Shown here: positions 17,509 to 38,029 of the stretch, piece after piece
How positions within the stretch are numbered: position 1 is the first letter of the stretch
How the letters are laid out: the number at the start of each line of letters is the position of its first letter
From: Roseovarius mucosus DSM 17069
GTDB lineage: Bacteria; Pseudomonadota; Alphaproteobacteria; Rhodobacterales; Rhodobacteraceae
DNA: 64,000 nt
Direction of reading: 5' to 3'
Assembly: GCF_000768555.3 (NCBI RefSeq)
Contig: NZ_KN293984.1
Coordinates: 42,751 to 106,750 of the forward strand
Made by a program: the position numbers and the translations under genes
Notes under the pieces: model-generated
What the model saw: the letters and a program-made list of their open reading frames with translations, nothing else
What the model was told of the DNA's origin: nothing
The model's database searches: none

Positions 17509-18720
17509 TCAGCCGACAGAGGCCTGAAGATCGAAGATCGGCAACAGGATCGCCAGCACGATCACCAGTACGAGCGCGCCCACGATCATCATCAATAGCG
17601 GGTCGATCAGGGCCGAGACACGCTTGCGCTCGTTGGTGAGCCAGGTTTCGACCAGCACCGCCGCGCGTTCGGTCATGCGGCCAAGGCGGGCGGATTTCTC
17701 GCCTGCGTCAATGAGTTGGCGGCAGACGGGTGGAATAAGGCTCATGCGGGTGAGACCCTGACTGAGGCTCTCGCCCGAGCGCACCGCCTCGGCCAGATCG
17801 AGCGCTTCGGCGCGAAAGCGGCGGATCACCAGCACATCGCTGGCAGAGGTCACGGCATCGACCACGGTCTGGCGGCTGGAAATCACCAGCGCCAGCGTGC
17901 GCAGATATTGCGCCGCCGCCGAGAGACGCAGAAGCCGGCCAATGACCGGCAGCGAGAGGGCAATGCCATGCCAGCGGTCACGCACAGACGGCACGCGCAG
18001 GGCAAAGACAAGGCCGGTGATGCTGGCGGCAATGCCGATGGCGAGGGCAATCCAATGCGCCTGAATCCAGTCGCTGATCGCCATGACCACCTGTGTCAGT
18101 GGCGGCAATTCGCGACCAGAGACCGCGAACATCGCGGCAATCTCGGGGGCGACGTTGACCATCAGGATGCCGCAGACCAAGAGCGACACGGCAGCCACGA
18201 AGGCCGGGTAGATCAGGGCGGTGGCCAGTTGCGCGCGGTCGGCACCGACGGTTTCGAGATATTCGGCCAGCCCCTCGAACACCGCGGCCACATCGCCCGA
18301 TGTTTCGCCCGCGCGCACCGCCGCGATGTAGAAACGGGGAAAGCCCGCGTTGGCCTTGTCGAGCGAGACCGAAAGCGGCTGGCCATCCATGAGCGCCGCC
18401 TTGGCCTCGGCTGCGGCGGCCTCGATCACCGGCGAGGTGCCGGAGGAGCGTATGGTTTCGAGCGCCATTTCGGCAGACAGGTCCGAGGACAGGAGCACCG
18501 CCATCTGGCGGGTGAAAACCGCGCGCATATCGGCGTTGAGCCGGGTGCGGCGGCTGCGCGCGAGCGTGAGACCGCCCCCCTGACGCTTGGCGATAATGTC
18601 CTCGGCAAAGAGGCCCTGACCGCGCAGGATGTCGGCGGCCTGTGCCTCGCTCTCGGCCACGAGGGTGCCGCGTTTGCGCTGACCTTCGGCATTGAAGGCG
18701 GTGTAGGCAAAGGCCCTCAC
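17509..18720 (-). CDS. gspF: Type II secretion inner-membrane platform protein GspF
   Basis: This 403-aa protein has the two repeated T2SSF domains (about residues 70-190 and 270-395) and three membrane helices near 165-190, 215-240 and 370-398. The N-terminus (MRAFAYTAFNAEGQRKRGTL) is typical of GspF. It anchors the GspE ATPase and pseudopilus assembly. Its start overlaps the gspE stop by four bases. Confidence 0.95.
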   Translation of the reverse strand: MRAFAYTAFNAEGQRKRGTLVAESEAQAADILRGQGLFAEDIIAKRQGGGLTLARSRRTRLNADMRAVFTRQMAVLLSSDLSAEMALETIRSSGTSPVIEAAAAEAKAALMDGQPLSVSLDKANAGFPRFYIAAVRAGETSGDVAAVFEGLAEYLETVGADRAQLATALIYPAFVAAVSLLVCGILMVNVAPEIAAMFAVSGRELPPLTQVVMAISDWIQAHWIALAIGIAASITGLVFALRVPSVRDRWHGIALSLPVIGRLLRLSAAAQYLRTLALVISSRQTVVDAVTSASDVLVIRRFRAEALDLAEAVRSGESLSQGLTRMSLIPPVCRQLIDAGEKSARLGRMTERAAVLVETWLTNERKRVSALIDPLLMMIVGALVLVIVLAILLPIFDLQASVG

Positions 18721-20171
18721 AGCGCGTCGCCCACCACGCGCAGCGCCTCGGCAAGGCTGGTTTTGCCCGCCGCCACCTGATGCAGCGATTGGCCAAAGAG
18801 GGTCTGATCGGGGGCGAGCGCCACGCGCTTCATCTCCATTTCCGACTGGCCCTTGTCGATGGCGGCGCGCAGGGCTTCGGACACTTCGAGGATTTCGAAC
18901 ACGCCAACGCGCCCCGCATAGCCGGTGCCATTGCAGGAGGAGCAGCCGACAGGGTGGTGGATCGTATCGGGGATCACCATGCCTGCGGCTGCAAAATGCG
19001 CGGCCTCATCGGCGGTGGGGGGGGCTGCGCGACGGCAGGTGGTACAGAGCTGACGCAAGAGGCGTTGGGCGATGACGCCCCGCAGGGTGGCGGCGATGAG
19101 AAAGTCATCCAGCCCCAGATCGCGCAGACGCACCACCGCGCCGACAGAGCCATTGGCGTGCAGCGAGGAAAACACCAAGTGCCCGGTAAGCGACGCCTGA
19201 GCGGCGACGCTGGCGGTTTCCTGATCGCGGATTTCGCCCACGAGGATGATGTCGGGGTCCTGACGCAGCGCCGCGCGCAGTCCAGCGGCAAAGGTCATGC
19301 CGATTTCGGCGTTGATCTGGCTCTGACTGATGCCGGGCAGATCGTATTCGATCGGGTCCTCGGCGGTGAGGATGTTGCGGATCTCGTCATTGGCGAGTTG
19401 CAGGAGCGAATAGAGCGTCGTCGTCTTGCCTGAGCCGGTGGGGCCGGTGGCAAGGATGATGCCATTGGGCCGCGCCGCCATACGCTCCAGCACCTCGATC
19501 TGATCGGCGCGCAGGCCAAGTTGATCCAGCGGCATGAGACCGGCAGAGCGGTCGAGCACCCGCATCACCACCCGTTCGCCATAGTTTCCGGGCAGGGTCG
19601 AGACACGCACGTCGATGGCGCGCCCGCCCAAGCGCAGCGAGATATGCCCATCCTGCGGCAGCCGGGTTTCGGAAATATCGAGGCCCGCCATCACCTTGAG
19701 CCGCGACACCACGCGGCGCACCGGCAGATCCTGACGGTCGAGGACCGATTGCAACATGCCGTCCACGCGCATCCGCGCGCGCAGGCCATTCTCATGCGGC
19801 TCGACATGCAGGTCAGAGGCCCCGGCGCGCACGGCGCGGCGCAAGAGCTGATTGACGAGCTGGATCACGGGCGCTTCTTCGCCGTCTTCAAGCAAGTCGC
19901 GCGGGCCACGGCCGCCGCCTGCCCCTTCTTCGAGATCAAAGGCCAGATCGTCTGTGCCGGTCTCGGCGCTGGTGCCGTCCTGATAGAGCACGGCGAGTCG
20001 CGCCTGAAACGCCTCGGAGGAAAGCTGTTCTGTTTCGAGCGGCTGGCCAGCCCGCCTGCGCGCCTCGCGCAGGCCGAGGGCCGTGGCACCGGGACCGATC
20101 AAAAGCCGCGCCCCTTCGATCAGAACCTGTTGATCGCGCGCGAGCGTAAAGGGCAAGAGCTGCGCGGTCAT
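18717..20171 (-). CDS. gspE: Type II secretion ATPase GspE
   Basis: This 484-aa secretion ATPase has the Walker A ATGPTGSGKTT, the Asp and His boxes (DPDIILVGEIRDQETA, GHLVFSSLHAN) and the zinc-binding tetracysteine (CTTC near 400 and CSSC near 435) characteristic of GspE. It powers pseudopilus growth at the inner membrane with GspF and GspL. It starts three bases after gspD and is coupled to gspF. Confidence 0.96.
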   Translation of the reverse strand: MTAQLLPFTLARDQQVLIEGARLLIGPGATALGLREARRRAGQPLETEQLSSEAFQARLAVLYQDGTSAETGTDDLAFDLEEGAGGGRGPRDLLEDGEEAPVIQLVNQLLRRAVRAGASDLHVEPHENGLRARMRVDGMLQSVLDRQDLPVRRVVSRLKVMAGLDISETRLPQDGHISLRLGGRAIDVRVSTLPGNYGERVVMRVLDRSAGLMPLDQLGLRADQIEVLERMAARPNGIILATGPTGSGKTTTLYSLLQLANDEIRNILTAEDPIEYDLPGISQSQINAEIGMTFAAGLRAALRQDPDIILVGEIRDQETASVAAQASLTGHLVFSSLHANGSVGAVVRLRDLGLDDFLIAATLRGVIAQRLLRQLCTTCRRAAPPTADEAAHFAAAGMVIPDTIHHPVGCSSCNGTGYAGRVGVFEILEVSEALRAAIDKGQSEMEMKRVALAPDQTLFGQSLHQVAAGKTSLAEALRVVGDAL

Positions 20172-20174
20172 GTT

Positions 20175-22124
20175 CTATCTGTCCGCGAATTTGAGCGCCG
20201 AGGGCAACGGGGGAAAGCGGCGGCTGCGCGCCGCCCCGTCGATGAACTTGGCATCGAACGGCTGGTTGAGGTCGGCCCCATCAAACGGAAAGCTGGAGTC
20301 CGGGACACGCGGGTAGGTGCCATCGTCCACGGGGGCGATATATTCGGCGGCGCGCTTGGCCTCGCGGGCCAGACGCTTGGTCAGTTCGCGCGCCTCTTCA
20401 TCACTGGACAGGATACGCGGGCGCAGCATCACCAAGAGGATGCGCTGGTTCTGATTGGTCGAGCGTCCCTTGAAGAGCCGCCCGAGAAGCGGCAGTTCGC
20501 TGAGACCCGGCACGCGTTGGTTGACCGAGCCAGAGCCATTTTCCAAGAGCCCGCCCAGCATGATGACATGCCCGTCGCGCACCAGCACGTTGGTCGAGAG
20601 TTCACGTTTGGAGGTGATCTCGCCCCCTGCCGCCGAGGCGGCATTGGTGAGGTTCGACACCTCTTGGTTGATCTCAAGGCGCACAGTGTTGTCGCGGGTG
20701 ATCTGCGGCGTGACGGTCAGGGTCAGACCCACGTCCTGCCGCTGGATGGTCTGAAAGGGCTGTTGCGGCACGGCGCTATCGCCCACGGTGGAGAAACTGC
20801 CGGTCACGAAAGGCACATTCTGCGCGACGATGATTTCCGCCTCACGATTGTTGAGCGTGAGAATGGAGGGGGTCGAGAGCAGTTTGGTCGAGCTTTTGGA
20901 GGCAAGCGCCGCGAGAAAACCGCCGATGCCGCTCTTGTCAAAGGCCGCGATGCTGCCGCCGGTGCCGCCGCCTTGCGGGGGATTGCCCGCAAGCACCGTG
21001 CTGACAAGGCTGGTCAGGGTGGGACGGCCCTGAATGGCAAATTCGACACCGCCCACGGTGGCCCCGTCGATGACGCCGCCGAACTGGAAGGAGAGGTCGG
21101 AAAAGCTCTCGACCGAAAGCTCGAAAATCACGGCCTCGATCAAAACCTGATCGGGGCGTTGATCCAAGCCCAGAACCGCATTGGTGATCGAAGCAATCCG
21201 GTCCGTAGGTGCGGTGATGATGAGCGCGTTCTGCTGTTCCTCGGCAACGATGGTGATGCCGCCGGGGGCTGACGCCGCGGGCGCGCTTCCGTCCGCCGGG
21301 GCCTCTGGCGCGCCGAAACTCTGGCGGATCACATTGGCCAGATCGGCGGCATTGGCATAGTTGAGATGCACCACCTCAGTTGCGATGCTGCGCTGCGGCT
21401 TGTCGAGTTCGGACACCACATCGCGCACACGGTCGCGGAATTCCGGCGTGCCCGACACGATGAGCGCGTTGGAACGCGGATCGGCCGACAGGCTGGAGCC
21501 CTGAGGGGTAATCGACAACGCGTTGATGACGCCGAGCATTTCGGCGGCCTTGCCATTGCGCAGGGGGATGGTTTCAATCGCGTTGCGGCTGGGCGTGTCG
21601 AGCCGGTCGACAAGCTGCACGATGCGTTGGAAATTCTCGCGACGGTCCGAGAGGATCATCAGCCCCGAATCCGGCACGGTCGACAGCACCGCTTCGGCGG
21701 GCAAGAGGGGGCGGATCACCTCTGCGACCTCATCGACGGCGCTGTTGCGCACGGGGATCACCCGTGTCTCGAAATCGCCGCCCAGCCGCGCGCGCGCATC
21801 CCCCGGCGCCAATTCGCGGGCAAGGTCGATGGGCACGATCCGGTCGGTTTCAGCACCTTCGACAATCGTCAGACGGTTGAGTTCGAGGACGTTGAGGAAA
21901 ATCTCGTAGATGGCGGAGGGTGTCACCTGATTGGGCGCAACCACGGTCACGGTGCCCTGCACCCGTTCGTCAAGAATGAAATTGCGCCCTGTGGATTGCG
22001 CAACGATCTGGACGAAATCGCGCAGGCTGGCATCGCGCAGATCAAGCGAGACCTGCGCCACCGACAGGCCGGGCCAAGCGCAGCAGAGCATCGCCACAAG
22101 GGCCAGACGTTTAAAAAATTGCAT
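20175..22124 (-). CDS. gspD: Type II secretion outer-membrane secretin GspD
   Basis: This 649-aa secretin carries a signal peptide (to about residue 23), an N0 domain (VSLDLRDASLRDFVQIVAQSTGRNFILD), N1-N3 repeats, and the C-terminal secretin barrel with the VPFVTGSF segment and the TIQRQDVGLTLTVTPQI signature. It forms the outer-membrane gate for folded periplasmic proteins. First gene of gspDEF; the divergent lipoprotein gene at 22379 may encode its pilotin. Confidence 0.96.
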   Translation of the reverse strand: MQFFKRLALVAMLCCAWPGLSVAQVSLDLRDASLRDFVQIVAQSTGRNFILDERVQGTVTVVAPNQVTPSAIYEIFLNVLELNRLTIVEGAETDRIVPIDLARELAPGDARARLGGDFETRVIPVRNSAVDEVAEVIRPLLPAEAVLSTVPDSGLMILSDRRENFQRIVQLVDRLDTPSRNAIETIPLRNGKAAEMLGVINALSITPQGSSLSADPRSNALIVSGTPEFRDRVRDVVSELDKPQRSIATEVVHLNYANAADLANVIRQSFGAPEAPADGSAPAASAPGGITIVAEEQQNALIITAPTDRIASITNAVLGLDQRPDQVLIEAVIFELSVESFSDLSFQFGGVIDGATVGGVEFAIQGRPTLTSLVSTVLAGNPPQGGGTGGSIAAFDKSGIGGFLAALASKSSTKLLSTPSILTLNNREAEIIVAQNVPFVTGSFSTVGDSAVPQQPFQTIQRQDVGLTLTVTPQITRDNTVRLEINQEVSNLTNAASAAGGEITSKRELSTNVLVRDGHVIMLGGLLENGSGSVNQRVPGLSELPLLGRLFKGRSTNQNQRILLVMLRPRILSSDEEARELTKRLAREAKRAAEYIAPVDDGTYPRVPDSSFPFDGADLNQPFDAKFIDGAARSRRFPPLPSALKFADR

Positions 22125-22378
22125 ATGTATAATTCAGGAACATCATTGGGTGATATCTCCTGCCTTTTCATGACTGCCTCAGGCCACCACTGCTCTGACC
22201 GGCGGTTTGGACCTCTGTGGTCAGACTACCCGATTTGATGTGTCGTTTCCATTGGAAAGACGGGCTGACGCAGGAATGTCCCAAAGCGTGTTTTTTTAGG
22301 CAATTCACGGATTTTTCATGGCTCGCACCGCATGGGGCATGGTAGGTTCCTGACCAAAAGGGCAGGAGCAGTTCACCA
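22125..22378. promoter_or_regulatory. Divergent promoter region of gspDEF and a lipoprotein gene
   Basis: These 254 bases separate two divergent genes and must contain both promoters. A 7-bp inverted repeat (TCTGACC at 22194-22200, GGTCAGA at 22219-22225) could be an operator. No confident -10/-35 elements by eye. Confidence 0.4.
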
Positions 22379-22903
22379 ATGCCGATTTCAAACAAGCCTT
22401 TGCTATGTCTGGCAGTTCTCATGGCGCTCGCAGGCTGTGAACCGGGTACGATCAGCGAAGGCGCGGATTTTCAGCGCAAATACAGCTCTGCACGCAAGGC
22501 GCTGGAGCAGGGCAATTATGACAGTGCCATTCGCAGTTATGCGGCGTTGATCCAGACAGCGGGGCCGCTTGAGCCGCGTCTCAGGCTGGAATACGCCCAC
22601 GCCCTCTTGCGGGCGAGCCGCTATGACGAGGCGGCACAAGTGGCCGGCGCGCTGGCGGCAGGCAGCAAAGGCAGCGACCGCGCGGCGGCGCTGGCGGTGA
22701 GCGGCACGGCGCAGCACGAAAGCGCCTTGGCGGACCTCGGCGCGGGGCGCACGGGGGCCGCGACCGTGGCCAAGCTGCGCGCAGCCGATGCCGCGCTCAA
22801 GGAGATGCTGGCGATTGACGACAGCCTTGATCCGCTGGGGGCCATGGCCAGCCGCCGGGCGGATATTGCCCGGGACCTCAAGCGTTTGGGGGCAGGCGGT
22901 TAG
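22379..22903 (+). CDS. TPR-like outer-membrane lipoprotein (possible secretin pilotin)
   Basis: This 174-aa protein has a lipoprotein signal peptide ending at a lipobox LAGC (Cys20) followed by Glu, which favours outer-membrane sorting. The mature part holds TPR-like helix pairs (ARKALEQGNYDSAIRSYAAL, LEYAHALLRASRYDEAAQVA). It is divergent from gspD and lies inside the T2SS locus. Secretin pilotins of the PilF/PilW type are TPR lipoproteins, so a role in GspD targeting or assembly is a reasonable inference; it could equally be an unrelated envelope lipoprotein. Confidence 0.65.
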   Translation: MPISNKPLLCLAVLMALAGCEPGTISEGADFQRKYSSARKALEQGNYDSAIRSYAALIQTAGPLEPRLRLEYAHALLRASRYDEAAQVAGALAAGSKGSDRAAALAVSGTAQHESALADLGAGRTGAATVAKLRAADAALKEMLAIDDSLDPLGAMASRRADIARDLKRLGAGG

Positions 22904-22933
22904 GGCGTGTTGCGCTCACTCGAAACCGCACCC

Positions 22934-23018: not shown

Positions 23019-23783
23019 TCAGAAGAGCGGCCAACCTGCGCCAAGGTCGATATCGCGGGTGATCTGCCAACCGTTGTCCACTGCCTCGCCGGACTGATCC
23101 AAGGCGCGCAGCCAGCCCACCGGCAGCTCGCCCACGGGGTCAATGCGCAGGTCAAGCTGTGCCATGGGATCGCCAAACCGCCCAGAGAGCGTGCCGCGCG
23201 CGTGGATCACGTCGCCGGTGAGAGAAAAGGGCGCGCGCCATGTGCCGGCATCCGACGTCAGAACCGCCTCGGCCGTGCCAATCTCTACGCCATTGATCCG
23301 CGCGCCGGACCAATCGATGACGGCGCCGAGCCGTGTCAAGCGCCGGTCCGGCAGGGTCAGATCCGCGCTTAGCCCCTCTGCCAGAACCCGTCCGCCAAGG
23401 GGCCAGCCGTCGATGAGCGCGGGCCAATCGCCGAGCAGGATGTCCAATCGCCCGCCGCGAAGCTCTGCCTGATCGAGCGCAAGGGGGAGCGTAAGCGCCC
23501 CCTGCCCCGACAGCCCCGGTCCGGACAGCGCGACGAACCAGCGCCCGCCCAGACCCTCGACCTGGTCAAAACGCCAGGTCACATCGCCCGCGACCGGCCA
23601 AGGCAGCATTTGCAGGCCCCGCCGCTGACCACGCCAGAGCGAAGAGTGATCCTCGGCCCCAGCGAGCCAGTCGGGCACCAGCCCCGGTGCCGCGCTGCGC
23701 AGGTGGGTCAAGCGCCCTTCGCTGAGTGCAGCCAGCGCAAGGCCAAGAACGAGGCCCAGAAGGATCAAAAGCAGACGTTTCAT
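23019..23783 (-). CDS. gspN: Type II secretion protein GspN
   Basis: This 254-aa protein has a single N-terminal membrane anchor (MKRLLLILLGLVLGLALAAL) and a periplasmic beta-rich domain with repeated WRG/GWPLGG motifs seen in GspN. Role in the T2SS is poorly defined. It overlaps the gspM stop by four bases and ends the gspG-N operon. Confidence 0.85.
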   Translation of the reverse strand: MKRLLLILLGLVLGLALAALSEGRLTHLRSAAPGLVPDWLAGAEDHSSLWRGQRRGLQMLPWPVAGDVTWRFDQVEGLGGRWFVALSGPGLSGQGALTLPLALDQAELRGGRLDILLGDWPALIDGWPLGGRVLAEGLSADLTLPDRRLTRLGAVIDWSGARINGVEIGTAEAVLTSDAGTWRAPFSLTGDVIHARGTLSGRFGDPMAQLDLRIDPVGELPVGWLRALDQSGEAVDNGWQITRDIDLGAGWPLF

Positions 23784-24295
23784 TGCAGCGGCACCAGACG
23801 CAGATCGGCGGCCACCACATCGGTGCGCGCGCCGCGTTCAAAGGTAAAACCCGCCAGATCATAGCCCCATGTATCGTTCTGCGCGGTCAGCCATTCGGCC
23901 AACTGCGTAAAGCGCACCGCGTCGAACCGCAGGGTGATGCCGCCGTCTGCCGCGTTGGCCAGTTCGGTGGCCGCTTCGCGCAGGCGCGCATCGCGCAGGC
24001 TGGCCTCGATCCCGCTGATGCCGATGGGGCTGGTGGCGCGCGTCACTTGGGGCCGCTGGCCGGCGTCCCGCGCCAGCGTGGCAAACTGCACCGCCTGATC
24101 GGCCACCCAGAGTTCGGTCGCGCGCGCCTCGGCCACGGCGGCGCGGGCCGCCTCGCGCGATTGGGCCAGAGGCAGGGCGATGCCATAGACCGCGCCAACC
24201 GGCAGCGCGATGAGTGCCAATACCGCGACGAGCCAGCGTTCGCGGCGGCTGAGCCCCAGCAGAAAGCCGGTCAATCTGTCCATCAGGGCGCTCAT
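23780..24295 (-). CDS. gspM: Type II secretion protein GspM
   Basis: This 171-aa inner-membrane protein has a short cytoplasmic N-terminus, one membrane helix (about residues 20-40) and a periplasmic ferredoxin-like domain. It pairs with GspL in the assembly platform. Four-base overlaps with gspL and gspN indicate translational coupling. Confidence 0.88.
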   Translation of the reverse strand: MSALMDRLTGFLLGLSRRERWLVAVLALIALPVGAVYGIALPLAQSREAARAAVAEARATELWVADQAVQFATLARDAGQRPQVTRATSPIGISGIEASLRDARLREAATELANAADGGITLRFDAVRFTQLAEWLTAQNDTWGYDLAGFTFERGARTDVVAADLRLVPLQ

Positions 24296-25495
24296 CGCTT
24301 GGGTCCGCCTTCGGTTACGGCCATGGCGAGCACCGCCTCGACGCCGGTATTCTCGCGGGTGACGGATTGGGCGACACGCGCCTCCGCGCCAGCATTGCGC
24401 AGGTCACTGACGAGCGCATCGAGCGCCGCGAAGTCGCTGATCTGCAGGTCGATCACCAGCCCCGCGCCGGGTTGATAGCTGACTCGCGTGATGGTGGTTT
24501 CGTGATTGGCCATCACCGCCCCGGCGCGGCGCAGCACATCGAGCGGGCGCGCCTCGGACTCGACTTCAGAGCTGGCGTTGCGGGCGCGGTCCATGACCTG
24601 TGCGACCTGACTGCGGATGTCGAGAATGGGGCCAGTGGGGATCATCACCTGCCGCAGGATGCGTTCGGCGTTCTGGCGATAGGCCAATCCTTGTGCATCG
24701 AGGGCGCGGGTTTCGATCATCGTGGCGGCGATCCAGCCGACAAGACCAAGCATCGCCAGTGCCAGAGGCAGGCGCAGGCGGCTGAGGGTGCGGCGCATTT
24801 CGGCGCGCTCGGCGCCCGGGTCGCGGGCGAGATCGAGCGCGAGTTCGTTATGGGCAAAGCGGGTGGGCGCGGCCACGCCATGCGCCGCGAGATCGCCGGG
24901 ATCGGCGCAGATCGGCAGGTTCAGCCCCGCGAGAAGCGCATCAATCGCGGGTTGTTCGGGGCCTTGGCGCAGGATGGCGCGGGGGGCCGCCCGCGCGCGC
25001 GGCCTCTTGCAGCAGGGCAAGGGCCAGATCCGGTTCGGCGCCAAAGCCGTCCTCGGGGCCAAGGCGGGCGATGACGGCGGTCTCGGTTGTCTCGATCACC
25101 CAGAGATCGGGGGCCGCCGGCAGGCAGAGGTAATCCGGCAGCACCGCGCGGCACAGCGGGGCAAAGAGCCCGAGCGCATGCAGCCAGTCGCGCCGGTCGC
25201 CCGCATCGGTCAGCAAGAGGCGCGTCCATTGGTCGGGGGTGGCCCCAAGCCGTGCGGGGCGAATATCGAGCCCCGTCTCGGTGCCGCCATAGGCATCGCG
25301 CAACTGGCGGCGGGCCACGCGGTCACGGGCCTGCCCCTTGAGCGCGGTCGGCAGATCGAGCGGCACCAGCGGCGCGGCCATCCCCGGCACCGAGGCCACG
25401 AAAGGCCCGCGCGGCGGCGGCACATCGCCGGTCAGGTCATGGACCGGCAAGGGCGCTGTCGTGCCGCGCGATTTTCGGGTGAGGGTCAGGGTCAT
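24292..25495 (-). pseudogene. gspL: gspL interrupted by a frameshift
   Basis: Two overlapping frames together make one GspL. The 5' part (25495 down to about 24985) encodes the cytoplasmic actin-like domain up to LALALLQEAARAGG. The 3' part encodes RAILRQGPEQPAIDALL, a membrane helix and the periplasmic domain. The frames join if one base is removed from the run of six G at 24981-24986 (plus strand), giving about 400 aa, normal for GspL. Four-base overlaps with gspK and gspM at both ends argue that the gene was recently intact. Sequencing error, slippage variation or true inactivation are all possible. GspL links the GspE ATPase to the membrane platform, so a true lesion would disable secretion. 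Confidence 0.85.
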
Positions 25496-26427
25496 TGGGT
25501 GACGGTCCGGCGGTGTCTGAGGGTGACGGCCCCGGTCAGCGTGGAGCGTTCGACTGTCAGGATGCGGCTTTGGATGCGCCCGTCAAGCCTTACATCGAAG
25601 CGCGCCTCGAACCAATCGGAGGCCGTGACAAAGCCGCCATCGGGCGCCAGGGATTGCGTGATCACGCGCGGGTGCAGCAGGGTCTCGGCGCGGGTCGTGA
25701 AATCCTCGCGGTCAGCAAAGGGCACGCGGCCGCGTTCCGCGATCAGCAGGGCTATTCCGGCGGGATTGGTGCCGGGCAGCATCGCGCCCAGAACCTCGGG
25801 CGAGGTGGTGTTGACATTGAGACCGCCACCGGGGGGCAGAGCCGCCACATAGGGCAAGAGCCGGGCATAGGCCTCGGCGGTCATGCCGTTGACGAGGCGC
25901 AACTCTTCGATCCGGTCGAGCGGCGCGCCCGCAGGCAGGATGGGCAAGGGGCGGCTGGCATATTCGGCCGTTTGGGCCGGGCCGCGTGCCTGAATGAACC
26001 CGGCGATTTCGCGGCCAAGCGTCAGCGGAAGGCCAAGGCTGGCCAAGAGCCGGTCAAAGGATTGCACCGCGTTGATATCCGACGGGTCGCTCAGGCTGTT
26101 GATATTGTAGCGCCCTTGCAGATCGGTAATGGTGCCGGTCATCTGGGCGCGGTCGATATCGGCCTCGAACCCGGCCAGCGACCAGCCTTCGAGCAGATGG
26201 TCAAGGTTCTGGTCGCGTTCCCAATCACCGCGCAGCACCGGGTCGATCAGCCATTCGGCGGCGTCGAGATGCAGTGCCGCCTGCTGGCTGACTTGCAGGT
26301 GTTCGACGCGGGTGCGGCTGGTTTCGGCACGCAGCATGAGACCGGCGGCCACGGCTGAAATGGCAGCGACCAGAAGCAGCGCATTGAGCAGTGCGACACC
26401 GCGATCCTGTGCGCCGGGCCGGGTCAT
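25492..26427 (-). CDS. gspK: Type II secretion minor pseudopilin GspK
   Basis: This 311-aa protein has a short leader ending in Gly before VALLNALLLVAAISAVAAG; position 5 of the mature protein is Asn rather than Glu, as expected for the tip pseudopilin GspK. The large periplasmic domain includes LQGRYNINSL and GLNVNTTSPEVL, both typical. The ATG at 26427 overlaps the gspJ stop by four bases; a longer upstream frame is rejected. Confidence 0.92.
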   Translation of the reverse strand: MTRPGAQDRGVALLNALLLVAAISAVAAGLMLRAETSRTRVEHLQVSQQAALHLDAAEWLIDPVLRGDWERDQNLDHLLEGWSLAGFEADIDRAQMTGTITDLQGRYNINSLSDPSDINAVQSFDRLLASLGLPLTLGREIAGFIQARGPAQTAEYASRPLPILPAGAPLDRIEELRLVNGMTAEAYARLLPYVAALPPGGGLNVNTTSPEVLGAMLPGTNPAGIALLIAERGRVPFADREDFTTRAETLLHPRVITQSLAPDGGFVTASDWFEARFDVRLDGRIQSRILTVERSTLTGAVTLRHRRTVTQ

Positions 26428-30960: not shown

Positions 30961-31835
30961 CAATTCACCTCAGGATGCAGCAATTTGCTGTATTCCTCTG
31001 CAAGTTCTTCGGACCCAAGCAGACCTTCGAGCCGGAGCCACGGGGCGTCCTTGTTCGCGCGCAGGAAGGTGAGCGGGCGGTGATACATCTTGTTGTCACC
31101 CTTATAAACCGCATCGAAGGCGCGCACGACGGTGAAGATGTCGTCGAACTGGCCTGTCAGCATGACCCAGTTCTCGCGGGCGGCGTGCAGGTCTGCATAC
31201 TCGCGCAGGCGCGTGGGCGTGTCGTATTCCGGGTCGATCGAGATCGAGACCATGAGGTAGTTGTCGTCGATGGCGACGAGGTCCTCTTGGGTCTGGCCAA
31301 AGGTCGCGCTCATCACCGGGCAGATGGTGGCGCAACTGGTGAAGATGAAATTGAGCAGAACCGGACCGTCAAAATCCAGCAAGTCCACAAAGCTTACCTT
31401 CTTGGCGAATTGATTGCGAAGCGTGACATCGGGCATCTGATAGTCTTGCAGACTGCGCTTGTATTGAAAGCCATCGGGGCTCATCGCGATGCCAAGGGTG
31501 TTTTGATCGTCCATCCCGAGATGGTCGGGCATACGGTGTCCAGCGGCGGCGTGGGCGTCGTGGCCCTCGGCCTGCATGGCCTGATGCGCCGAATGATTGC
31601 TATGATCGTCGGTCATGGCACCGCTGTGATCATGGCCCTCGGTCTGGGCACCATGATCCATTGAATGGCCGGTGTGATCGGCACTCGTGGTCGCGCTGTG
31701 ATCGTGACCTTGGCTATGGTCTTCGGTTTTGGTGTGGCCGGAATGATCGGCCGAGGCAGGGGCCGCGAATGCCAAAAGCGCCAGGCTGAGGGCACAGGCG
31801 GGCGCGATCCATGGGGCAGCTTTGGTCTCGTTCAT
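30960..31835 (-). CDS. His-rich SCO1/SenC-family copper chaperone
   Basis: This 291-aa protein has a signal peptide (to about residue 29) and a long His/Asp-rich segment of repeated DHSGH/GHDHS units (about 30-100), well suited to metal loading. The thioredoxin-like SCO domain follows, with intact CxxxC (SCATICP, near 170), SISIDPEYDTP and a later His (MYHRP) ligand. It delivers copper to cuproenzymes, here most likely the multicopper oxidase of the same cluster. GGAGACTT precedes the ATG. It corresponds to one of two SCO genes in iox clusters (probably ioxD). Confidence 0.85.
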   Translation of the reverse strand: MNETKAAPWIAPACALSLALLAFAAPASADHSGHTKTEDHSQGHDHSATTSADHTGHSMDHGAQTEGHDHSGAMTDDHSNHSAHQAMQAEGHDAHAAAGHRMPDHLGMDDQNTLGIAMSPDGFQYKRSLQDYQMPDVTLRNQFAKKVSFVDLLDFDGPVLLNFIFTSCATICPVMSATFGQTQEDLVAIDDNYLMVSISIDPEYDTPTRLREYADLHAARENWVMLTGQFDDIFTVVRAFDAVYKGDNKMYHRPLTFLRANKDAPWLRLEGLLGSEELAEEYSKLLHPEVN

Positions 31836-31923: not shown

Positions 31924-33849
31924 TTAGTGGATCGACCACACGGCGACATCATGGTGCAGCGCGTCGAACTGGTACATCCGCAGACGTGCAGAGGGCTCGT
32001 AGCTGAAGGTCACTTCGAGGTGGTGTTCCCCGATGCCATCGACATTCACATACTCGTTCATTTCCTGCTGCATGCCGCCCCAAGCGAACTCGGAATTGCC
32101 GCGGCCTATGCCATTGCCATTGGAAACCTGCCAGACCGTATCGTTGACAGGGGTCTTGGGCGCATCAGCCGGAGGTGTTGCCGGCGGGACGGGGATCGGT
32201 CCGCCCCCTGCGACATGGATCCAGAAGTAGTTCCGGCCAAAGGTGAAGAGAGGTCCGGCACCGCCGCTGGGCAGGGTGTTGTGGAAGGTATTTTCCCAGC
32301 CACGCAGACCGCCGAAGTCCACCAGAACATAGGCGTGAACAAAGTAGTCGCCATTCAGAAGCTGAATATTGACCTTGTCGCCGCGCTTTTTCCAAGGGCC
32401 GTTGAACATCCGCACCTGAGATGTGCCGTCGTGATCCTTAATCTGACCGTAGATGGTGTTGTTGAGGAACAGAACGGTGACATCCGCATCCTCGGCCATT
32501 TCATAGCCGGTGGGCAGGTGGTTGCGGTTCCGCCAGTCATAGAAGGCCTGACGGATCAGGTGCATCTGCGCCTGAACGATCGAGCCATTGAGACCACCAC
32601 CAAAGTGCTTGTTGCGGCGGTTGATGGTCATGCCGGCCATTTCACGGAACATCTGCCACATGCGCTTGGCCGGGGCGGTGTCGCCGATCATGGCGATTGC
32701 ATCCAGCTTCGCCTGTTCGCTGGCGCGCGGGTTTTCACCGAATACGCCAATCTCTGCGGTGTTGCGCAATGCGCCGTTGCGCAGCGGAACGCGCATGTTC
32801 TCGACCACCTGAACCCGCGGCGGGTGCTGACGCCAGCCCCAGTGATAGCTGAGGTTCCAGAAGCGTGCCGGGGGCATCTTCATGTTGAGCGTATACTCAA
32901 GACCCTCTTGCATCGGGAAGAAGGTCTGGTCCATGCCGATGTTGGGAACGCGCGGGAATGCGGTGCCACCAGCGGTCATGTCCGGTCCACCTTCGGGGGT
33001 GAAGTCGAACTCTGTCCAGTCATCGAAGAACATCGCATAGGGGGCAAAGTCTTCGTGGCCGCGGTTGAGGATCTTGACGACGTAGTGGATCGTCCATTCC
33101 TCATCCGTCACAGCGATCGGGTCGATATAGTTTGCGTCGGCTTCGATATGGCTGTCATACCAGATCTGGTTGATAGTGACCGACTTGGTCTCAGGATCGA
33201 CCGCTTTGGTCTTGATGCCACCGAGATAGTGCAGCAAGGGGAAACCTTCGTATTCCCGTTCGCTGAAACGACCCTTGAGCTCGTTGCCCTCGATGATGTC
33301 GACAGCGCGGCTCGCAAGGGTGCGCAGGGTCGCGGGATTGACCCGGCGCGGATAGTTGTAGCAGTGCCGATTGCCGCGGAAAGTCCGGCAAATCTCGTGC
33401 GGCTCCGACATCGCCTCGATCCGGTCCATGATCCAATCAAGGTCATCGGTGGGCGAGGTCTTGTCGATCTGCCGTGTCACCGGATCGTCGTGCAGGTTGT
33501 AGGGGTTGTCCGGTGTCGAAGGCAGGGTGTTGGGGATTTCATTGCCCCGACAGGTTTTGGCGTTCTCGTAGATGGTCGGCAGCAGGTTGGTCGGATTGGG
33601 ACCAAAGCTGTCACCCTCGGGGAAAACCGAGTAGCCGTCCGCCGTCAAGAGCGTTGTCGTATTGCCAACAGTCGTGCGCGTCTCGAATGGCACGCGCGGC
33701 TGCTGACCACCGTTGGCATGTCCCGACACGTTGCAGAACATGTTCAGGTCGAAGGGTGTCTGGGCCCAAGCGGGCGCCCCCCCAACCATGGCCGAAGCGG
33801 GCAATGCCATCACCGCGGCCAGTCTTATGGATTTACGAAACATTTTCAT
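31924..33849 (-). CDS. ioxC: IoxC-like secreted partner of the multicopper oxidase (641 aa)
   Basis: The signal peptide (AWAQ at about residue 30) leads into a large mature protein with no metal or catalytic motif I can name. It contains several Trp/Tyr/His-rich segments (YHWGWRQHPP, YDWRNRNH, DALHHDVAVW). Its position between two SCO genes downstream of a multicopper oxidase matches IoxC, reported as the co-purifying component of extracellular iodide oxidase. Exact length correspondence is not checked. No cytoplasmic features; probably exported and then secreted by the surrounding T2SS. Confidence 0.65.
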   Translation of the reverse strand: MKMFRKSIRLAAVMALPASAMVGGAPAWAQTPFDLNMFCNVSGHANGGQQPRVPFETRTTVGNTTTLLTADGYSVFPEGDSFGPNPTNLLPTIYENAKTCRGNEIPNTLPSTPDNPYNLHDDPVTRQIDKTSPTDDLDWIMDRIEAMSEPHEICRTFRGNRHCYNYPRRVNPATLRTLASRAVDIIEGNELKGRFSEREYEGFPLLHYLGGIKTKAVDPETKSVTINQIWYDSHIEADANYIDPIAVTDEEWTIHYVVKILNRGHEDFAPYAMFFDDWTEFDFTPEGGPDMTAGGTAFPRVPNIGMDQTFFPMQEGLEYTLNMKMPPARFWNLSYHWGWRQHPPRVQVVENMRVPLRNGALRNTAEIGVFGENPRASEQAKLDAIAMIGDTAPAKRMWQMFREMAGMTINRRNKHFGGGLNGSIVQAQMHLIRQAFYDWRNRNHLPTGYEMAEDADVTVLFLNNTIYGQIKDHDGTSQVRMFNGPWKKRGDKVNIQLLNGDYFVHAYVLVDFGGLRGWENTFHNTLPSGGAGPLFTFGRNYFWIHVAGGGPIPVPPATPPADAPKTPVNDTVWQVSNGNGIGRGNSEFAWGGMQQEMNEYVNVDGIGEHHLEVTFSYEPSARLRMYQFDALHHDVAVWSIH

Positions 33850-33901
33850 TGTCTCCGATTCAAAATACTGTTCTGGCGCCCCGGTTTCCCGGGGCCCGGG
33901 A

Positions 33902-34690
33902 TCAGACTTCGCGGTTGTGGTTGCGCGTATCTTTCAGATCGAACACGCGCGGACCGGCCCGGCGCAGCTTTTCACCGACTTTCGGCGCAGGCTGCGGCAT
34001 GACCCAGGTGACACGGTTGGCGGCATCGTCGGCCCGGATATCCCAGGGGAACGATCCCCAGAGACCGGCGCTGCCGTTGCCGTAGAACACCACGTCCACC
34101 TTGCGCTTGCCGGGCAGAGTCGAATGACTCATGCGATACATCCGGAAGGCAAGGTCGGCGCAATGCTGCGGCGTCCCGGTCAGGAAATGCCAGCCCTTGG
34201 GCGCACCGAGTTCCGAGGCATAGGCCTGCATGCGTGCAGGGGTGTCATGCTCGGGATCGCGGCTGATCGAGTACACGAAAACATCGCGCCCGACCTTGTC
34301 GCCCAATTCTGCAACCACGTCAGCCATACGGCGGGTGATCGGGAAATGGCCTTCGTCCTTGAGGCTCATGAAGTGCATCATCACGACCTTGTTCTCGATG
34401 AAGCCCTCATAGAAGGACATCCCGAGACCGTCCTGATTGACCATCATCACATTGGGGAACGAATCGTTCACCGCCGAGTTGATGACCCCACCGCTGTTCA
34501 CCGGATTGCAGAGCACCGGCATGTCGTTGGGGTGCAGGTTCGTCTTGGTATCGCGCAGTTTCGCGAGTGCGGCTTTGCGGGCCTCATCGGCGCGCTCTTT
34601 GGAGTTACCCGGCGTGGTGTAAAACCCGGCGGTCATCCCAGCAGCCGCCGCGACCGGAAGACCGGCCAAGAATTGACGTCTGTTTGTCAT
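33902..34690 (-). CDS. Tat-exported SCO-like protein lacking the copper-binding CxxxC
   Basis: This 262-aa protein starts with a twin-arginine signal (TNRRQFLAGLPVAAAAG). The body aligns with SCO proteins: SISRDPEHDTPARMQAYA corresponds to the SCO motif of its neighbour at 30960. But where SCO has SCATICP it has FMSLKDEGHFP, with no cysteine. It therefore cannot bind copper or do redox chemistry in the usual way, and may be a structural chaperone or oxidase subunit. GAGAGGAAAAG precedes the ATG at 34690. Corresponds by position to ioxB. Confidence 0.75.
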   Translation of the reverse strand: MTNRRQFLAGLPVAAAAGMTAGFYTTPGNSKERADEARKAALAKLRDTKTNLHPNDMPVLCNPVNSGGVINSAVNDSFPNVMMVNQDGLGMSFYEGFIENKVVMMHFMSLKDEGHFPITRRMADVVAELGDKVGRDVFVYSISRDPEHDTPARMQAYASELGAPKGWHFLTGTPQHCADLAFRMYRMSHSTLPGKRKVDVVFYGNGSAGLWGSFPWDIRADDAANRVTWVMPQPAPKVGEKLRRAGPRVFDLKDTRNHNREV

Positions 34691-34734
34691 GTCTTTTCCT
34701 CTCATTTTCAGAGAATTCCTAGAAGGATTTCCGC

Positions 34735-36630
34735 TCAGTCACCCTGACCCGGCTCCACGATATCCCAGCGCATCATCATTGCGTGGTCTTCGTGCACGAC
34801 GTTGTGGCAGTGCATCACGTGCTTGCCAAAGAAGTCGCGCCAGCGGCTGAAGAATGTCACCTCGTCACCCGGCCCGAGCGAGACCACGTCCTTGCGGGCA
34901 CGCTCTACCGCACTTGGCGGACGACCGTTGACCTCGAGGATCTGGAACTCTTCGAAGTGGGTATGAACCGGGTGCGCCCAGGCTGTGCCCTCGTTGCGGA
35001 AGGTCCAGATTTCGGCAGAACCCTGCTCGATCTTGGCATCCACACGGTTGGGATCCATCAGGCGACCGTTCACCGTCCAAAGGCCGTTGTCGTAGTCGAA
35101 TACGAACAGGCGCTTGCGGCGGACTTCGGACATGCGGATTTCCGGAAGCTTGCGCATGGTGGCAGGAACGCGCGACGGATCGGGCTTCTTGCGGCCTTTG
35201 CAACGGAATTCCATGACGGGCATCATGTTCTCGCCTTCCAGCGTAAAGCCGGTCGGACCTGCACCATCGCCGCGGATTTCCAGATCGTTCCAGACCTGGA
35301 CCTTGTCGCCATTCTTGTACTTCGAGAAGTCGATGATGACGTCAAAGCGGTTGGCGATCCAGAGGTCGATCTTGGGTTCGACCAGCGGGGCCTCGAGCAG
35401 GTTGCCGTCATTCGACAGCACGATGAAGTCGTCAAAATAGGGCTCGCCACGACCGGGCTTCGGCACGACCTTAAGCACCAGACGATAGAGACGCGACGGG
35501 CCGCCGTTGAGGAAACGGAAGCGATACTTGCGACGGTCCACATCGAGATAGGGCTGGATGATCCGGTTGACCGTGATCTTGTCGCCCGTCATGCCCTGCG
35601 TGGTGTATTGCAGGCGGTTGGAGTCGAACGTATCGGGCGTGCCCTGAGAGTTGCCGACCTCGACAGGTGCCGGGCGCGCTTCGGGATGCGGCGACGCACC
35701 ATCGGGCGAGAAGAAGTCCCAGATCACCTGACCGTTGGGCTGGAACATGACATCGTGCAGGATCAGCGGAATGTCATATTTGCCCGAGGGCAGACGGAAG
35801 GCGCGCGGATTGCGATCCCGCTCGTTGTTGGAATCGCGCTCGTCGAAGATCAGGTAGAAGCCCGAAAAGCCCGCATACACGTTGGTGGCGGTAAAATCGA
35901 GCCGGTGATCGTGATACCACAGGGTATTCATGATCTCGGGGTTGTCGTAATCCCAATTGAACGGCGTACCAGCCGGGATGTTGGCGTAATGGTGATCCCA
36001 GAATTCGCCGGGATTGAAGAAGTCCTGCGGAATACCGTCCGACTCGGACGCGGTATGGCCGTTGTGCAGGTGGATGGTCGGCGAGGGCAACGCAAAGGTC
36101 ACATTGCCGGCACCCACAGTGGGCAGCAGGTTGTTGCGCCGCAGGAAAACCGGCTCGCCGTAATAGGCGTGATAGGTTTCACCCGGCGTGATGCCGTTAA
36201 AGCCCCAGTGCCAGGACCCGACGTCTGGATCGCCAGCACGCCCGACAACGCCCTCGGTGCCGTCGCCATACGGGGGCTGCCAGTGATACTTCCACCGGAA
36301 TTCGGTCATCACTTCTTCGTAATGCTTTTGCGGCGGGAAATCGTCAAAGCGCTGGTGGCGCTCGGGCTCGATCGGCGGGTCGTAGGTGTTGGGATTGACC
36401 GGCTGCGCGATCGGCATGATGTTCAGCGGGGCCGTGAATGGCTCGACCGCCGGGCTTGATTGCACGACAATGCTCGGCTCAAAAGTGTCGGGGAATACCA
36501 GGCCGGTTTGCGGCAACCCTTCCGCGGCACTGTCCGGCCACTGCTCGATCTCGACCGCTCCGGCCTGCGATGCCGCCACAGTGGCACCCGCAGCCCCAAG
36601 GCCGAGCTTTAATGCGTCTCTTCGTTTCAT
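34735..36630 (-). CDS. ioxA: Secreted multicopper oxidase, probable iodide oxidase
   Basis: This 631-aa protein has a twin-arginine signal (KRRDALKLGLGAAG) and all four copper motifs of three-domain multicopper oxidases: HLHNGH (187-192), WYHDH (238-242), HPVHTH (553-558) and HCHNVVHEDHAMM (from 607), which gives T1 and trinuclear sites with a Met axial ligand. Cluster context (two SCO proteins, an IoxC-like partner and a cytochrome) matches the iodide oxidase of iodide-oxidising alphaproteobacteria. A laccase or Mn(II) oxidase remains possible. GGAGG lies seven bases before the ATG. It is flanked by T2SS genes, fitting an extracellular enzyme. Confidence 0.8.
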   Translation of the reverse strand: MKRRDALKLGLGAAGATVAASQAGAVEIEQWPDSAAEGLPQTGLVFPDTFEPSIVVQSSPAVEPFTAPLNIMPIAQPVNPNTYDPPIEPERHQRFDDFPPQKHYEEVMTEFRWKYHWQPPYGDGTEGVVGRAGDPDVGSWHWGFNGITPGETYHAYYGEPVFLRRNNLLPTVGAGNVTFALPSPTIHLHNGHTASESDGIPQDFFNPGEFWDHHYANIPAGTPFNWDYDNPEIMNTLWYHDHRLDFTATNVYAGFSGFYLIFDERDSNNERDRNPRAFRLPSGKYDIPLILHDVMFQPNGQVIWDFFSPDGASPHPEARPAPVEVGNSQGTPDTFDSNRLQYTTQGMTGDKITVNRIIQPYLDVDRRKYRFRFLNGGPSRLYRLVLKVVPKPGRGEPYFDDFIVLSNDGNLLEAPLVEPKIDLWIANRFDVIIDFSKYKNGDKVQVWNDLEIRGDGAGPTGFTLEGENMMPVMEFRCKGRKKPDPSRVPATMRKLPEIRMSEVRRKRLFVFDYDNGLWTVNGRLMDPNRVDAKIEQGSAEIWTFRNEGTAWAHPVHTHFEEFQILEVNGRPPSAVERARKDVVSLGPGDEVTFFSRWRDFFGKHVMHCHNVVHEDHAMMMRWDIVEPGQGD

Positions 36631-37189
36631 GCTTTGTCCTCCAGCAGAAAAAGCTTGCGAAAATTACCAGCGCCACGCTCCAGACATGACGCCATCAACC
36701 CCGCGCCAGACATGCCGCGAGAAAGGAGGGCCGGAGCCCCTGTAAGTCAGCGACCGTTCAGGCCGCCCTATGTCAGTTTCGAGCGAACTCGATATGCGAG
36801 AGATTACAGGCCGGTAGAGGTGAGTAATGTTTGGCCCGCGCGGATCAGTGATCCGCAGATTTTGGGTTAATAGATTTGAGCAATTGCTCCCCGTTCAGCG
36901 CACAAAACCGCGCCCTATTGACATTGGCAGTAACGTCAAGAGCGCCAAAATGACGCGCCTGACACTGCTAGCTCAACACAAAATCTTGCGTGGAACAACG
37001 ATAACATTTTCGTGAGCGGGCCGTAATGTTACTTCATTTGCCGGATTTGCAAGAAGCAAGGTTTCAAACTGCTGATAATAAATGATTTTTTATTTCGCCG
37101 GGATGACCGGAAACTGAAACAAATACAGCCGTGGATAGTAAATAGTTTATGAATTTTCGATTTAAAGGGGGGGACGCAAAAAATCGTAC
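36631..37189. promoter_or_regulatory. AT-rich regulatory gap upstream of the oxidase cluster
   Basis: About 560 bases without a gene between ioxA and the 3' end of gspC, markedly more AT-rich than its surroundings from about 36860 on. It must contain the oxidase-cluster promoter. A near-perfect dyad is described separately at 36840-36856. No riboswitch or RNA gene recognised. Confidence 0.5.
36840..36856. promoter_or_regulatory. Operator-like inverted repeat upstream of ioxA
   Basis: GCGGATCA (36840-36847) and TGATCCGC (36849-36856) form a perfect 8-bp inverted repeat around a single base, about 210 bp upstream of ioxA. It could be a regulator site or a hairpin; no regulator gene is adjacent. 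Confidence 0.4.
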
Positions 37190-38029
37190 CTAGCTGCGCC
37201 CGGTGATCCGCACGGAAATGGTGCGCCGTTGACCACCGCGCATGATTTCAACAGCGAATTCATCGGCTTCTGCCAAAAGCTGTCTGGCGTTCACCAGCGT
37301 TTCCGGATCGGAAACAGAATAACCGTTGACGCGCAGCACAAGATCGCCACGACGCAGGCCGATCAGGTCGTAAACCTGCCCTTCGCGCACCCATAAAATT
37401 TCGGGAAAGACCTCGTTTGCGTTGCTGCCAACCGTGACCATCCGCACGCTGCCCGCGCGCCCCAGAACACGGCGCAAATCGCTGCCGGAAAAGGCGCTGG
37501 CCGGAATTTCGGCCTCATCTTCCTGCACGGAGCCATTGACCATCATCCGGGCCATCATTTCGTCGGGCGTTTCCTCAAAGGCGATCAGAACCCGCTCTGT
37601 GGCACGCTCGATCCAAACCCCATCAGGAGCGATTTCAAGCACGGTTTCACCGCCGATCAGCCGGTCGCCTGCGCGCACCAGCCGGTCGCCATCCGACGCG
37701 GTGAGAATGGCCCAGCCACTCTCGCCCCCCGCGACCAACCCGACGAGGCGGTATTTCTCGACCTTCTTGGCAATGGTCGGGGCCTTGGGCGGATCTGGCA
37801 CATAAGGGTCAAAGACAGGGGGCCAGCTCTCTGGCAAGGGCGCTTCTGCGGCATTCTCGACAGCGGCCAAGGCGGCGGTGATCTGCACGGGCTGGGGCGG
37901 CACGGCCCCACGCCCCAGCAGGGTCAACCCAATCTGGCCTGCGCCAAAGCCGCAAAAGATCGAGGCGGCAAGTGTGAGAAACCCCAGTCCGCGCACAACC
38001 TCAGCTCCTGCGCGATGGGTTGCGCGCAT
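37190..38029 (-). CDS. gspC: Type II secretion inner-membrane protein GspC (detached)
   Basis: This 279-aa protein has one N-terminal membrane helix, a proline-rich linker, the GspC homology region (YRLVGLVAGGESGWAILTASDGDRLVRAGDRLIGGETVLEI) and a C-terminal PDZ domain (YDLIGLRRGDLVLRVNGYSV). GspC connects the platform to the GspD secretin and helps select substrates. It lies about 9 kb from the other gsp genes with the oxidase cluster in between, all read leftward. The Shine-Dalgarno before ATG 38029 is weak. Confidence 0.85.
   Translation of the reverse strand: MRATHRAGAEVVRGLGFLTLAASIFCGFGAGQIGLTLLGRGAVPPQPVQITAALAAVENAAEAPLPESWPPVFDPYVPDPPKAPTIAKKVEKYRLVGLVAGGESGWAILTASDGDRLVRAGDRLIGGETVLEIAPDGVWIERATERVLIAFEETPDEMMARMMVNGSVQEDEAEIPASAFSGSDLRRVLGRAGSVRMVTVGSNANEVFPEILWVREGQVYDLIGLRRGDLVLRVNGYSVSDPETLVNARQLLAEADEFAVEIMRGGQRRTISVRITGRS

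What the first reader, a model, noticed from the sequence alone, without database searches (positions are those of the whole stretch)
17509..38029. T2SS locus wrapped around an iodide-oxidase (iox) cluster
gspC is separated from gspG-N and gspO by a multicopper oxidase, two SCO-like proteins, an IoxC-like protein and a cytochrome, all leftward. Iodide oxidase of Roseovarius-type bacteria is extracellular; this layout suggests the T2SS is its dedicated exporter. Established: iox clusters contain a multicopper oxidase and IoxC. Inference: secretion link.
Basis: partly seen in the sequence, partly recalled or inferred. Interest (0 to 1): 0.8.

Follow-up and report, generated by a model that had tools for sequence, protein, structure and literature searches.

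The report
Iodide oxidase with its own exporter
A marine Roseovarius bacterium carries the genes for an enzyme that turns iodide into iodine inside a gene block for one protein-export machine, and in the genomes compared the two are mostly kept together or lost together, so the machine is probably that enzyme's own exporter.

Summary
The layout is real: window 17509-38029 holds gspC, ioxA-B-C-D-E, gspO, gspG-N, a TPR lipoprotein gene and gspD-E-F. The iodide oxidiser Roseovarius sp. A-2 has the same order around iox (IoxA 83%, IoxC 68% identical). Of 84 Roseovarius genomes, 14 carry full ioxC; all 14 have gspG about 4 kb away, against 5 of 70 others. gspC stands before ioxA in 14 of 14; in 17 other T2SS loci it was found before gspD in 14 and nowhere else. 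Six relatives inside the main iox clade lack iox, and all six lack the T2SS; three keep scars. This supports a dedicated exporter, but linkage alone could explain joint loss, and secretion is untested. Divergent iox-like clusters occur without a linked T2SS. That gsp genes flank iox was published in 2022 for Iodidimonas, function open. New here: relocated gspC, joint loss, and a conserved, covarying RNA leader (about 235 nt) before ioxA, one copy in each of 14 iox genomes, no Rfam match. In this assembly gspL is split by a frameshift.

The parts
17509..18720 (-). gspF
   Evidence: Pfam T2SSF E 2.1e-45; NCBIfam GspF below its cut-off
18717..20171 (-). gspE ATPase
   Evidence: Pfam T2SSE E 5.5e-129, GSPE_N1E; NCBIfam GspE below its cut-off
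20175..22124 (-). gspD secretin; the only GspD over cut-off found in this genome
   Evidence: NCBIfam TIGR02517 429.6 bits, cut-off 351.35; own-genome search
22379..22903 (+). TPR lipoprotein conserved in gsp loci
   Evidence: TPR matches; found in many relatives
23019..23783 (-). gspN-position gene
   Evidence: no Pfam match; conserved in position in most iox loci and in 3 family loci; name inferred from position
23780..24295 (-). gspM
   Evidence: Pfam T2SSM E 6.1e-19
24292..25495 (-). gspL, split between two frames (N part 24941-25495, C part within 24292-25062)
   Evidence: GspL_C Pfam on the C part; one open frame of 394-404 aa in 13 of 13 relatives, pieces here
25492..26430 (-). gspK
   Evidence: Pfam T2SSK; start approximate
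26424..27050 (-). gspJ
   Evidence: Pfam T2SSJ and N_methyl; start approximate
27041..27409 (-). gspI pseudopilin
   Evidence: N_methyl and position
27394..27882 (-). gspH
   Evidence: Pfam GspH, N_methyl
27870..28325 (-). gspG major pseudopilin
   Evidence: Pfam T2SSG E 2.7e-37; TIGR01710 over cut-off; likely start
28440..29192 (+). gspO prepilin peptidase
   Evidence: Pfam A24_N_bact and Peptidase_A24
29272..30963 (-). ioxE: cytochrome c domain (CVNCH) plus a C-terminal domain resembling type-1 periplasmic binding proteins (weak model)
   Evidence: Pfam Cytochrom_C; Foldseek on a low-confidence model
30960..31835 (-). ioxD: SCO/SenC with CxxxC kept, His-rich N-terminus
   Evidence: Pfam SCO1-SenC E 1.6e-17; CxxxC in 22 of 22 tblastn rows, duplicate loci included
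31924..33849 (-). ioxC, partner protein of the oxidase
   Evidence: 68% identical to the A-2 locus; no Pfam or NCBIfam match, no credible PDB match
33902..34705 (-). ioxB: SCO-like protein with Tat-like start, no CxxxC
   Evidence: Pfam SCO1-SenC E 3.7e-7; no CxxxC in 23 of 23 tblastn rows, duplicate loci and partial rows included
34735..36630 (-). ioxA: multicopper oxidase, Tat-type signal
   Evidence: Pfam Cu-oxidase_2 E 5.4e-17, Cu-oxidase_3 just below cut-off; 83% identical to A-2; twin Arg and copper-ligand motifs invariant in 12 aligned sequences
36631..36865 (-). conserved structured leader upstream of ioxA
   Evidence: alignments of 13 loci; covariation; model found in 14 iox genomes; no Rfam match there
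37190..38029 (-). gspC with C-terminal PDZ domain
   Evidence: T2SSC and PDZ Pfam matches below gathering; NCBIfam GspC models below cut-off; before ioxA in 14 of 14 iox genomes

Best explanation
The block is one functional module: an extracellular iodide oxidase (IoxA with IoxC) together with a type II secretion system that serves mainly or only to release it. Proposed route: IoxA enters the periplasm by Tat, IoxC by Sec; IoxD (SCO with its CxxxC) delivers copper and IoxB (SCO-like without CxxxC) assists assembly; IoxE handles electrons or binds a ligand; the folded IoxA-IoxC complex is selected by the module's own GspC (with PDZ domain) and leaves through GspD. Outside, it oxidises iodide to iodine with oxygen. 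Shown here: gene content, similarity to A-2, co-occurrence, gspC position, joint absence. From the literature: extracellular enzyme in Iodidimonas, IoxA plus IoxC in the purified enzyme. Inferred: that this T2SS carries this cargo, the transport route, and the roles of IoxB, IoxD and IoxE.
For: 14 of 14 Roseovarius genomes with full ioxC have gspG about 4 kb away, against 5 of 70 without (Fisher p 3.7e-12, not corrected for relatedness). On an RpoB tree of 74 genomes independent contrasts go the same way: 6 of 6 in 193 of 200 pairings, 5 with one tie in 7; median p 0.031, range to 0.0625. Six iox-less genomes inside the 19-genome main clade all lack gspG and a GspD over cut-off. G040 keeps pieces of both gsp and iox, G083 a broken gspF, G023 a gspF 3'-end scar. 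The 14 iox-type T2SS form one clade (support 100); none of 17 loci without iox falls in it. gspC stands before ioxA in 14 of 14 but before gspD in 14 of the 17 other loci. iox and gsp distances agree (r 0.93, 0 of 2000 permutations). This is the genome's only GspD over cut-off. In A-2 the gspDEF part lies on another contig than iox and is still kept. The enzyme was purified from culture supernatant (PMC9415286, passage).
Against: The genes are adjacent, so a single deletion removes both, and joint loss does not prove functional need. Divergent iox-like clusters have no linked T2SS: G006 and G068 have no gspG match, G1170 has its GspD about 123 kb away, G941 has none over cut-off, and L016 shows no gsp in the 17.5 kb held. 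Five genomes without full ioxC have gspG. The window's own gspL is frameshifted. G052 has iox but no GspD over cut-off; its contig ends at gspM. The iox and gsp trees differ at some forks. G072 was scored iox-positive in the contrast test on an ioxE fragment alone. Other cargo of this T2SS was not searched for.
Confidence: 0.75

Rival explanations
1. General-purpose exporter: the T2SS releases several enzymes, IoxA among them, and lies beside iox because the two arrived together on one segment; joint loss is a side effect of linkage.
For: One deletion explains the G023 scar. 38 of 294 other sampled family genomes have gspG, and none of these 38 is among the IoxC matches, so T2SS in the family usually serve something else.
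Against: The iox-type T2SS is a separate clade into which none of 17 loci without iox falls; its gspC stands at ioxA; in A-2 the gspDEF part on another contig is kept.
Confidence: 0.18
2. The oxidase leaves the cell by another route (lysis, vesicles, another exporter) and the T2SS has an unrelated function in the same strains.
For: iox-like clusters occur without a linked T2SS, two of them in genomes with no gspG match. It is not known whether those products are extracellular.
Against: Co-occurrence in 14 of 14 and six genomes lacking both within the clade.
Confidence: 0.05
3. In this particular strain the exporter is decaying, because gspL is broken: an early stage of the loss seen in relatives (compatible with the best explanation for the locus in general).
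For: gspL is in pieces here and in one frame in 13 of 13 relatives; absences are frequent in this clade.
Against: The other genes are open and very similar to relatives; a single frameshift in a GC-rich draft may be a sequencing error.
Confidence: 0.15

Closest known systems
iox cluster of Roseovarius sp. A-2
   Same: Order gspC-ioxABCDE-gspO-gspG to gspN, IoxA 83% and IoxC 68% identical, leader present
   Different: TPR gene and gspDEF lie on another contig in A-2; gspL in one frame there
iox cluster of Iodidimonas (ioxA-F) flanked by gsp genes (PMC9415286)
   Same: Multicopper oxidase, SCO proteins, IoxC, gsp genes in the flanks
   Different: Six genes with a third SCO (ioxF), not found next to ioxE here; exact gsp order there not seen by me (figure not held)
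T2SS loci of other Rhodobacteraceae
   Same: gspO next to gspG to gspM, TPR lipoprotein, gspDEF in most of them
   Different: gspC before gspD where found; no iox; outside the iox-type clade
CotA / bilirubin oxidase multicopper oxidases
   Same: Multicopper oxidase with four copper-ligand motifs
   Different: Only distant similarity; best PDB match E 5.9e-47 over part of the protein; no tree built
iox-like clusters of G006 and G068
   Same: A-B-C-D-E gene order
   Different: Matching segments mostly about 28-41% identical, IoxA-like protein 946 aa in G006, no gspG and no leader match in either genome

Membership tests
iodide oxidase (iox) cluster | Multicopper oxidase IoxA with the copper-binding regions | tested here: met
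   Pfam Cu-oxidase_2; conserved ligand motifs; 83% to A-2
iodide oxidase (iox) cluster | IoxC encoded with IoxA | tested here: met
   68% identical, full length, to the A-2 locus
iodide oxidase (iox) cluster | SCO-family genes ioxB, ioxD (and ioxF in Iodidimonas) | tested here: inconclusive
   ioxB and ioxD present; no ioxF next to ioxE, where gspO follows; rest of the genome not searched for it
iodide oxidase (iox) cluster | Oxidises iodide to iodine outside the cell | not testable with these tools
   Needs an assay
type II secretion system | GspC, D, E, F, G-M and prepilin peptidase encoded | tested here: met
   several matches below curated cut-offs; gspL present but split
type II secretion system | Secretion of a folded substrate | not testable with these tools
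   Needs mutants
known Rfam RNA family (for the ioxA leader) | Match to a curated covariance model | tested here: not met
   window 36500-38200: only one hit up to E 1, outside the leader and far below its gathering score

The most novel reading that the evidence does not exclude
The block is a single-cargo secretion module under control of its own RNA switch: a structured leader in the ioxA transcript senses a halide, iodine, copper or redox signal and gates translation of an extracellular oxidase whose dedicated T2SS is encoded around it. The leader would be a new class of cis-regulatory RNA.
Probability: 0.25. Interest if true: 0.85.

Novelty: new variant of a known kind. Interest (0 to 1): 0.6.

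Why it matters
Iodide oxidation to iodine bears on the marine iodine cycle, corrosion in iodine-producing wells and competition between bacteria. Whether the gsp genes are needed to secrete its extracellular enzyme was stated as unclear in 2022 (PMC9415286). The comparative evidence here turns that into a direct test (gsp deletion in A-2) and offers a T2SS that may serve one cargo, useful for studying how T2SS choose substrates, with gspC placed at its cargo gene. The conserved leader upstream of ioxA is a separate lead towards how the enzyme is controlled.

Tried and rejected
Chance rearrangement: rejected; gsp around iox in 11 of 12 loci and a matching deletion boundary. Laccase or Mn oxidase: not supported by similarity, but no tree was built. 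Plasmid-borne iox: no IoxC match on 72,556 plasmid records at E 1e-5; for IoxA 82 records at E 1e-30, all under 60% identical.

IoxC structure: prediction with 13 sequences gave mean pLDDT 49, so no fold search was made. The IoxE model was also weak (mean pLDDT 51); its fold matches (TM-scores at most 0.35 in the 50 rows listed) are only suggestive. A first RpoB tree was discarded because a group of 11 rows sat on an absurdly long branch, taken to be wrong-strand reads; it was rebuilt with frame choice by similarity and only the second is used. Iodidimonas genomes were not reached, so their synteny rests on the review's text.

A short upstream reading frame in the leader was considered by eye and does not look conserved. 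DNA operator instead of RNA: possible for the first palindrome, less likely for several covarying helices. Against the RNA reading: folded alone, the window's leader is not clearly more stable than shuffles (z -1.55, 11 of 200 fold as well), and the 'further pair types' measure was reached by 37 of 500 shuffles.

Rows dropped: 10 of 84 genomes were left out of the RpoB tree, their rpoB missing or in pieces (G037, G038, G039, G048, G053, G056, G057, G061, G063, G075); G051, G034, G072, G071 and G074 went in with a partial rpoB. Of 20 family T2SS stretches fetched, 14 entered the tree with 3 Roseovarius loci; L075, L080, L084, L085, L086, L088 were left out as incomplete or of another T2SS type, L023 and L024 as fragments. 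In the contrast test G072 was counted as iox-positive because of an ioxE fragment.
Full report
What is there. To the left lie genes resembling molybdate transport (called modE, A, B, C here by their domains; the names are recalled); to the right a conserved gene without Pfam match (R1, 38155-39054) and an EamA transporter gene (R2, 39228-40355).

Is it iox? The locus of Roseovarius sp. A-2 (L018) has the same order around iox, with IoxA 83% and IoxC 68% identical. A review (PMC9415286; passages only) states that the iodide oxidase is extracellular, that it was purified from culture supernatant of Iodidimonas sp. Q-1, and that IoxA and IoxC were found in the enzymes of Q-1 and A-2. It also says that gsp genes flank iox in Iodidimonas and that their need for secretion is unclear. 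The Q-1 genome note (PMC4082002, whole text) reports a complete gsp set. So the linkage as such is published for Iodidimonas. The listings showed no paper that by title or abstract describes it in Roseovarius; most of those papers were not opened, and the A-2 enzyme paper of 2015 was not looked up.

Proteins. IoxA carries a twin-arginine start and copper-ligand motifs that are invariant in 12 aligned sequences; its closest solved relatives are bilirubin oxidase and CotA, at a distance. IoxC has no Pfam or NCBIfam match and no credible PDB match. IoxD keeps the SCO CxxxC motif in 22 of 22 tblastn rows and IoxB lacks it in 23 of 23; both lists include duplicate loci, and some rows are partial. 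IoxE joins a cytochrome c domain to a domain whose weak model resembles type-1 periplasmic binding proteins.

Distribution. Of 84 Roseovarius genomes, 14 hold full-length IoxC (over 1000 bits) and 2 a divergent relative. gspG was found in 19 of 84: all 14 iox genomes, each about 4 kb from ioxC, and 5 of the other 70. Of these five, G072 has a short contig with an ioxE fragment beside gspO and a second one with TPR-gspD and no gspC match between, so probably the same locus in a broken assembly; the rest are G003, G014, G062 and G075. IoxC is rare elsewhere: besides this genome 0 of 384 in a class sample, 1 of 393 in a family sample (G806, whose contig runs ioxA-E, gspO, gspG) and 2 of 397 in a phylum sample. 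gspG occurs in 38 of 294 sampled family genomes besides this one.

A separate T2SS lineage. A tree of GspG to GspM puts the 14 iox-type systems in one clade (support 100), apart from 17 other Rhodobacteraceae loci, including three Roseovarius T2SS without iox. In the 17 other loci gspC was found directly before gspD in 14: 13 by tblastn and L021 by a T2SSC domain match. L069 has an unconfirmed 167-aa reading frame there; L071 and L072 gave none. In iox loci gspC stands before ioxA in 14 of 14. So gspC appears to have moved to its cargo gene. Of the GspC proteins scanned, three of three iox-type and three of three from the sister group have PDZ matches, while L021 has only the T2SSC domain. In Vibrio cholerae the PDZ domain of EpsC is needed for only a subset of substrates (PMC12369372, abstract), so substrate choice by GspC is plausible, not shown here. 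iox and gsp distances across the 14 genomes agree (r 0.93, 0 of 2000 permutations), though the two trees differ at some forks.

Joint loss. On an RpoB tree of 74 of the 84 genomes, 12 iox genomes lie in one clade of 19; G020 and G052 form a separate pair elsewhere. Six members of the 19 lack iox (G008, G009, G023, G040, G047, G083), the nineteenth is G072. All six lack gspG and any GspD over cut-off. In G023, R1 is followed directly by modE with a remnant of the 3' end of gspF between them (score 21; 0 of 2000 shuffles and 0 of 282 other tiles reach it). G083 keeps a broken gspF beside R1. G040 (73% complete) keeps gspE, most of ioxE, and pieces of gspD, gspF, gspC and ioxA. G008, G009 and G047 show no remnant in the stretch around R1. 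Independent contrasts: 6 of 6 in 193 of 200 pairings, 5 and one tie in the other 7; median p 0.031, range to 0.0625. On this tree iox needs 6 changes and T2SS presence 10, the extra ones from T2SS without iox. The counts 14 of 14 against 5 of 70 give Fisher p 3.7e-12 without correction for relatedness. Linkage is a real confounder: one deletion removes both. Against pure linkage stand the separate T2SS lineage, the position of gspC, and A-2, where the TPR-gspDEF part is on another contig.

Counter-evidence. G006 and G068 hold divergent A-B-C-D-E clusters and have no gspG match. G1170 has such a cluster with GspD about 123 kb away, and G941 has A-B-C with no GspD over cut-off. L016 has iox and no gsp in the 17.5 kb held; its genome was not held. 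Whether those products are extracellular is unknown. 13 of 14 iox genomes have one GspD over cut-off; G052 has none, and its locus stops at gspM at the contig end. The window's own gspL is split between two frames, while 13 of 13 relatives have one open frame: assembly error or real decay.

A structured leader. Between gspC and ioxA about 235 nt next to the ioxA start are strongly conserved in 13 loci. Over four helices 98.5% of cells are standard pairs; 6 pairs have changes on both sides against 1.5 in shuffles (0 of 500 reach it), and slid versions pair in 28-49% of cells; one measure, further pair types, was reached by 37 of 500 shuffles. A further hairpin covaries by eye. Single-sequence folding of the window copy is not clearly more stable than shuffles (z -1.55). 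Rfam gives no match there. A covariance model of 78 positions from the 5' part, built from 13 of the 14 iox genomes, finds one strong copy in each of the 14 (G041 was not in the training set) among 84 genomes, plus one weak match in G025 (28.6 bits, E 2.7e-4) taken as chance. In 33 sources searched more closely it also gave two weak matches away from any ioxA start (L018, E 0.0054; L093, E 0.084) and none upstream of ioxA in the divergent or scarred loci. It thus goes with the T2SS-linked iox locus and is most simply a cis-regulatory RNA; what it senses, if anything, is unknown. One paper search for such a switch listed one paper, not on this subject by its title.

Verdict. The locus is a variant of the iox-gsp arrangement already noted in Iodidimonas, with new comparative evidence for a single module and a new candidate regulatory RNA.

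Noticed in passing
window 36631-36865 (-): Conserved, covarying leader directly upstream of ioxA; one strong copy in each of 14 iox genomes; no Rfam match there.
   Followed up: yes
window 36994-37009 (-): A second conserved block in the gspC-ioxA gap, further upstream, perhaps a promoter or regulator site.
   Followed up: no
window 24292-25495 (-): gspL is split between two frames; 13 of 13 relatives have one open frame. Real decay or assembly error.
   Followed up: partly
window 1-7000: Low-GC stretch (about 0.48-0.55 against about 0.63) with a resolvase, a phage-type integrase and a DUF4062/HEAT protein: a likely mobile island.
   Followed up: no
L025 7160-15517; L026 5885-13805: Divergent iox-like A-B-C-D-E clusters, with an enlarged IoxA-like protein (946 aa in L025), in two Roseovarius genomes without a gspG match; substrate unknown.
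   Followed up: partly
L094 2249-9732: Decaying gsp-iox locus: pieces of both halves side by side, with part of the order inverted.
   Followed up: partly
window 38155-39054 (-): Neighbour gene R1 without Pfam match, found in 46 of 84 Roseovarius genomes and near iox in all 14 iox genomes.
   Followed up: partly
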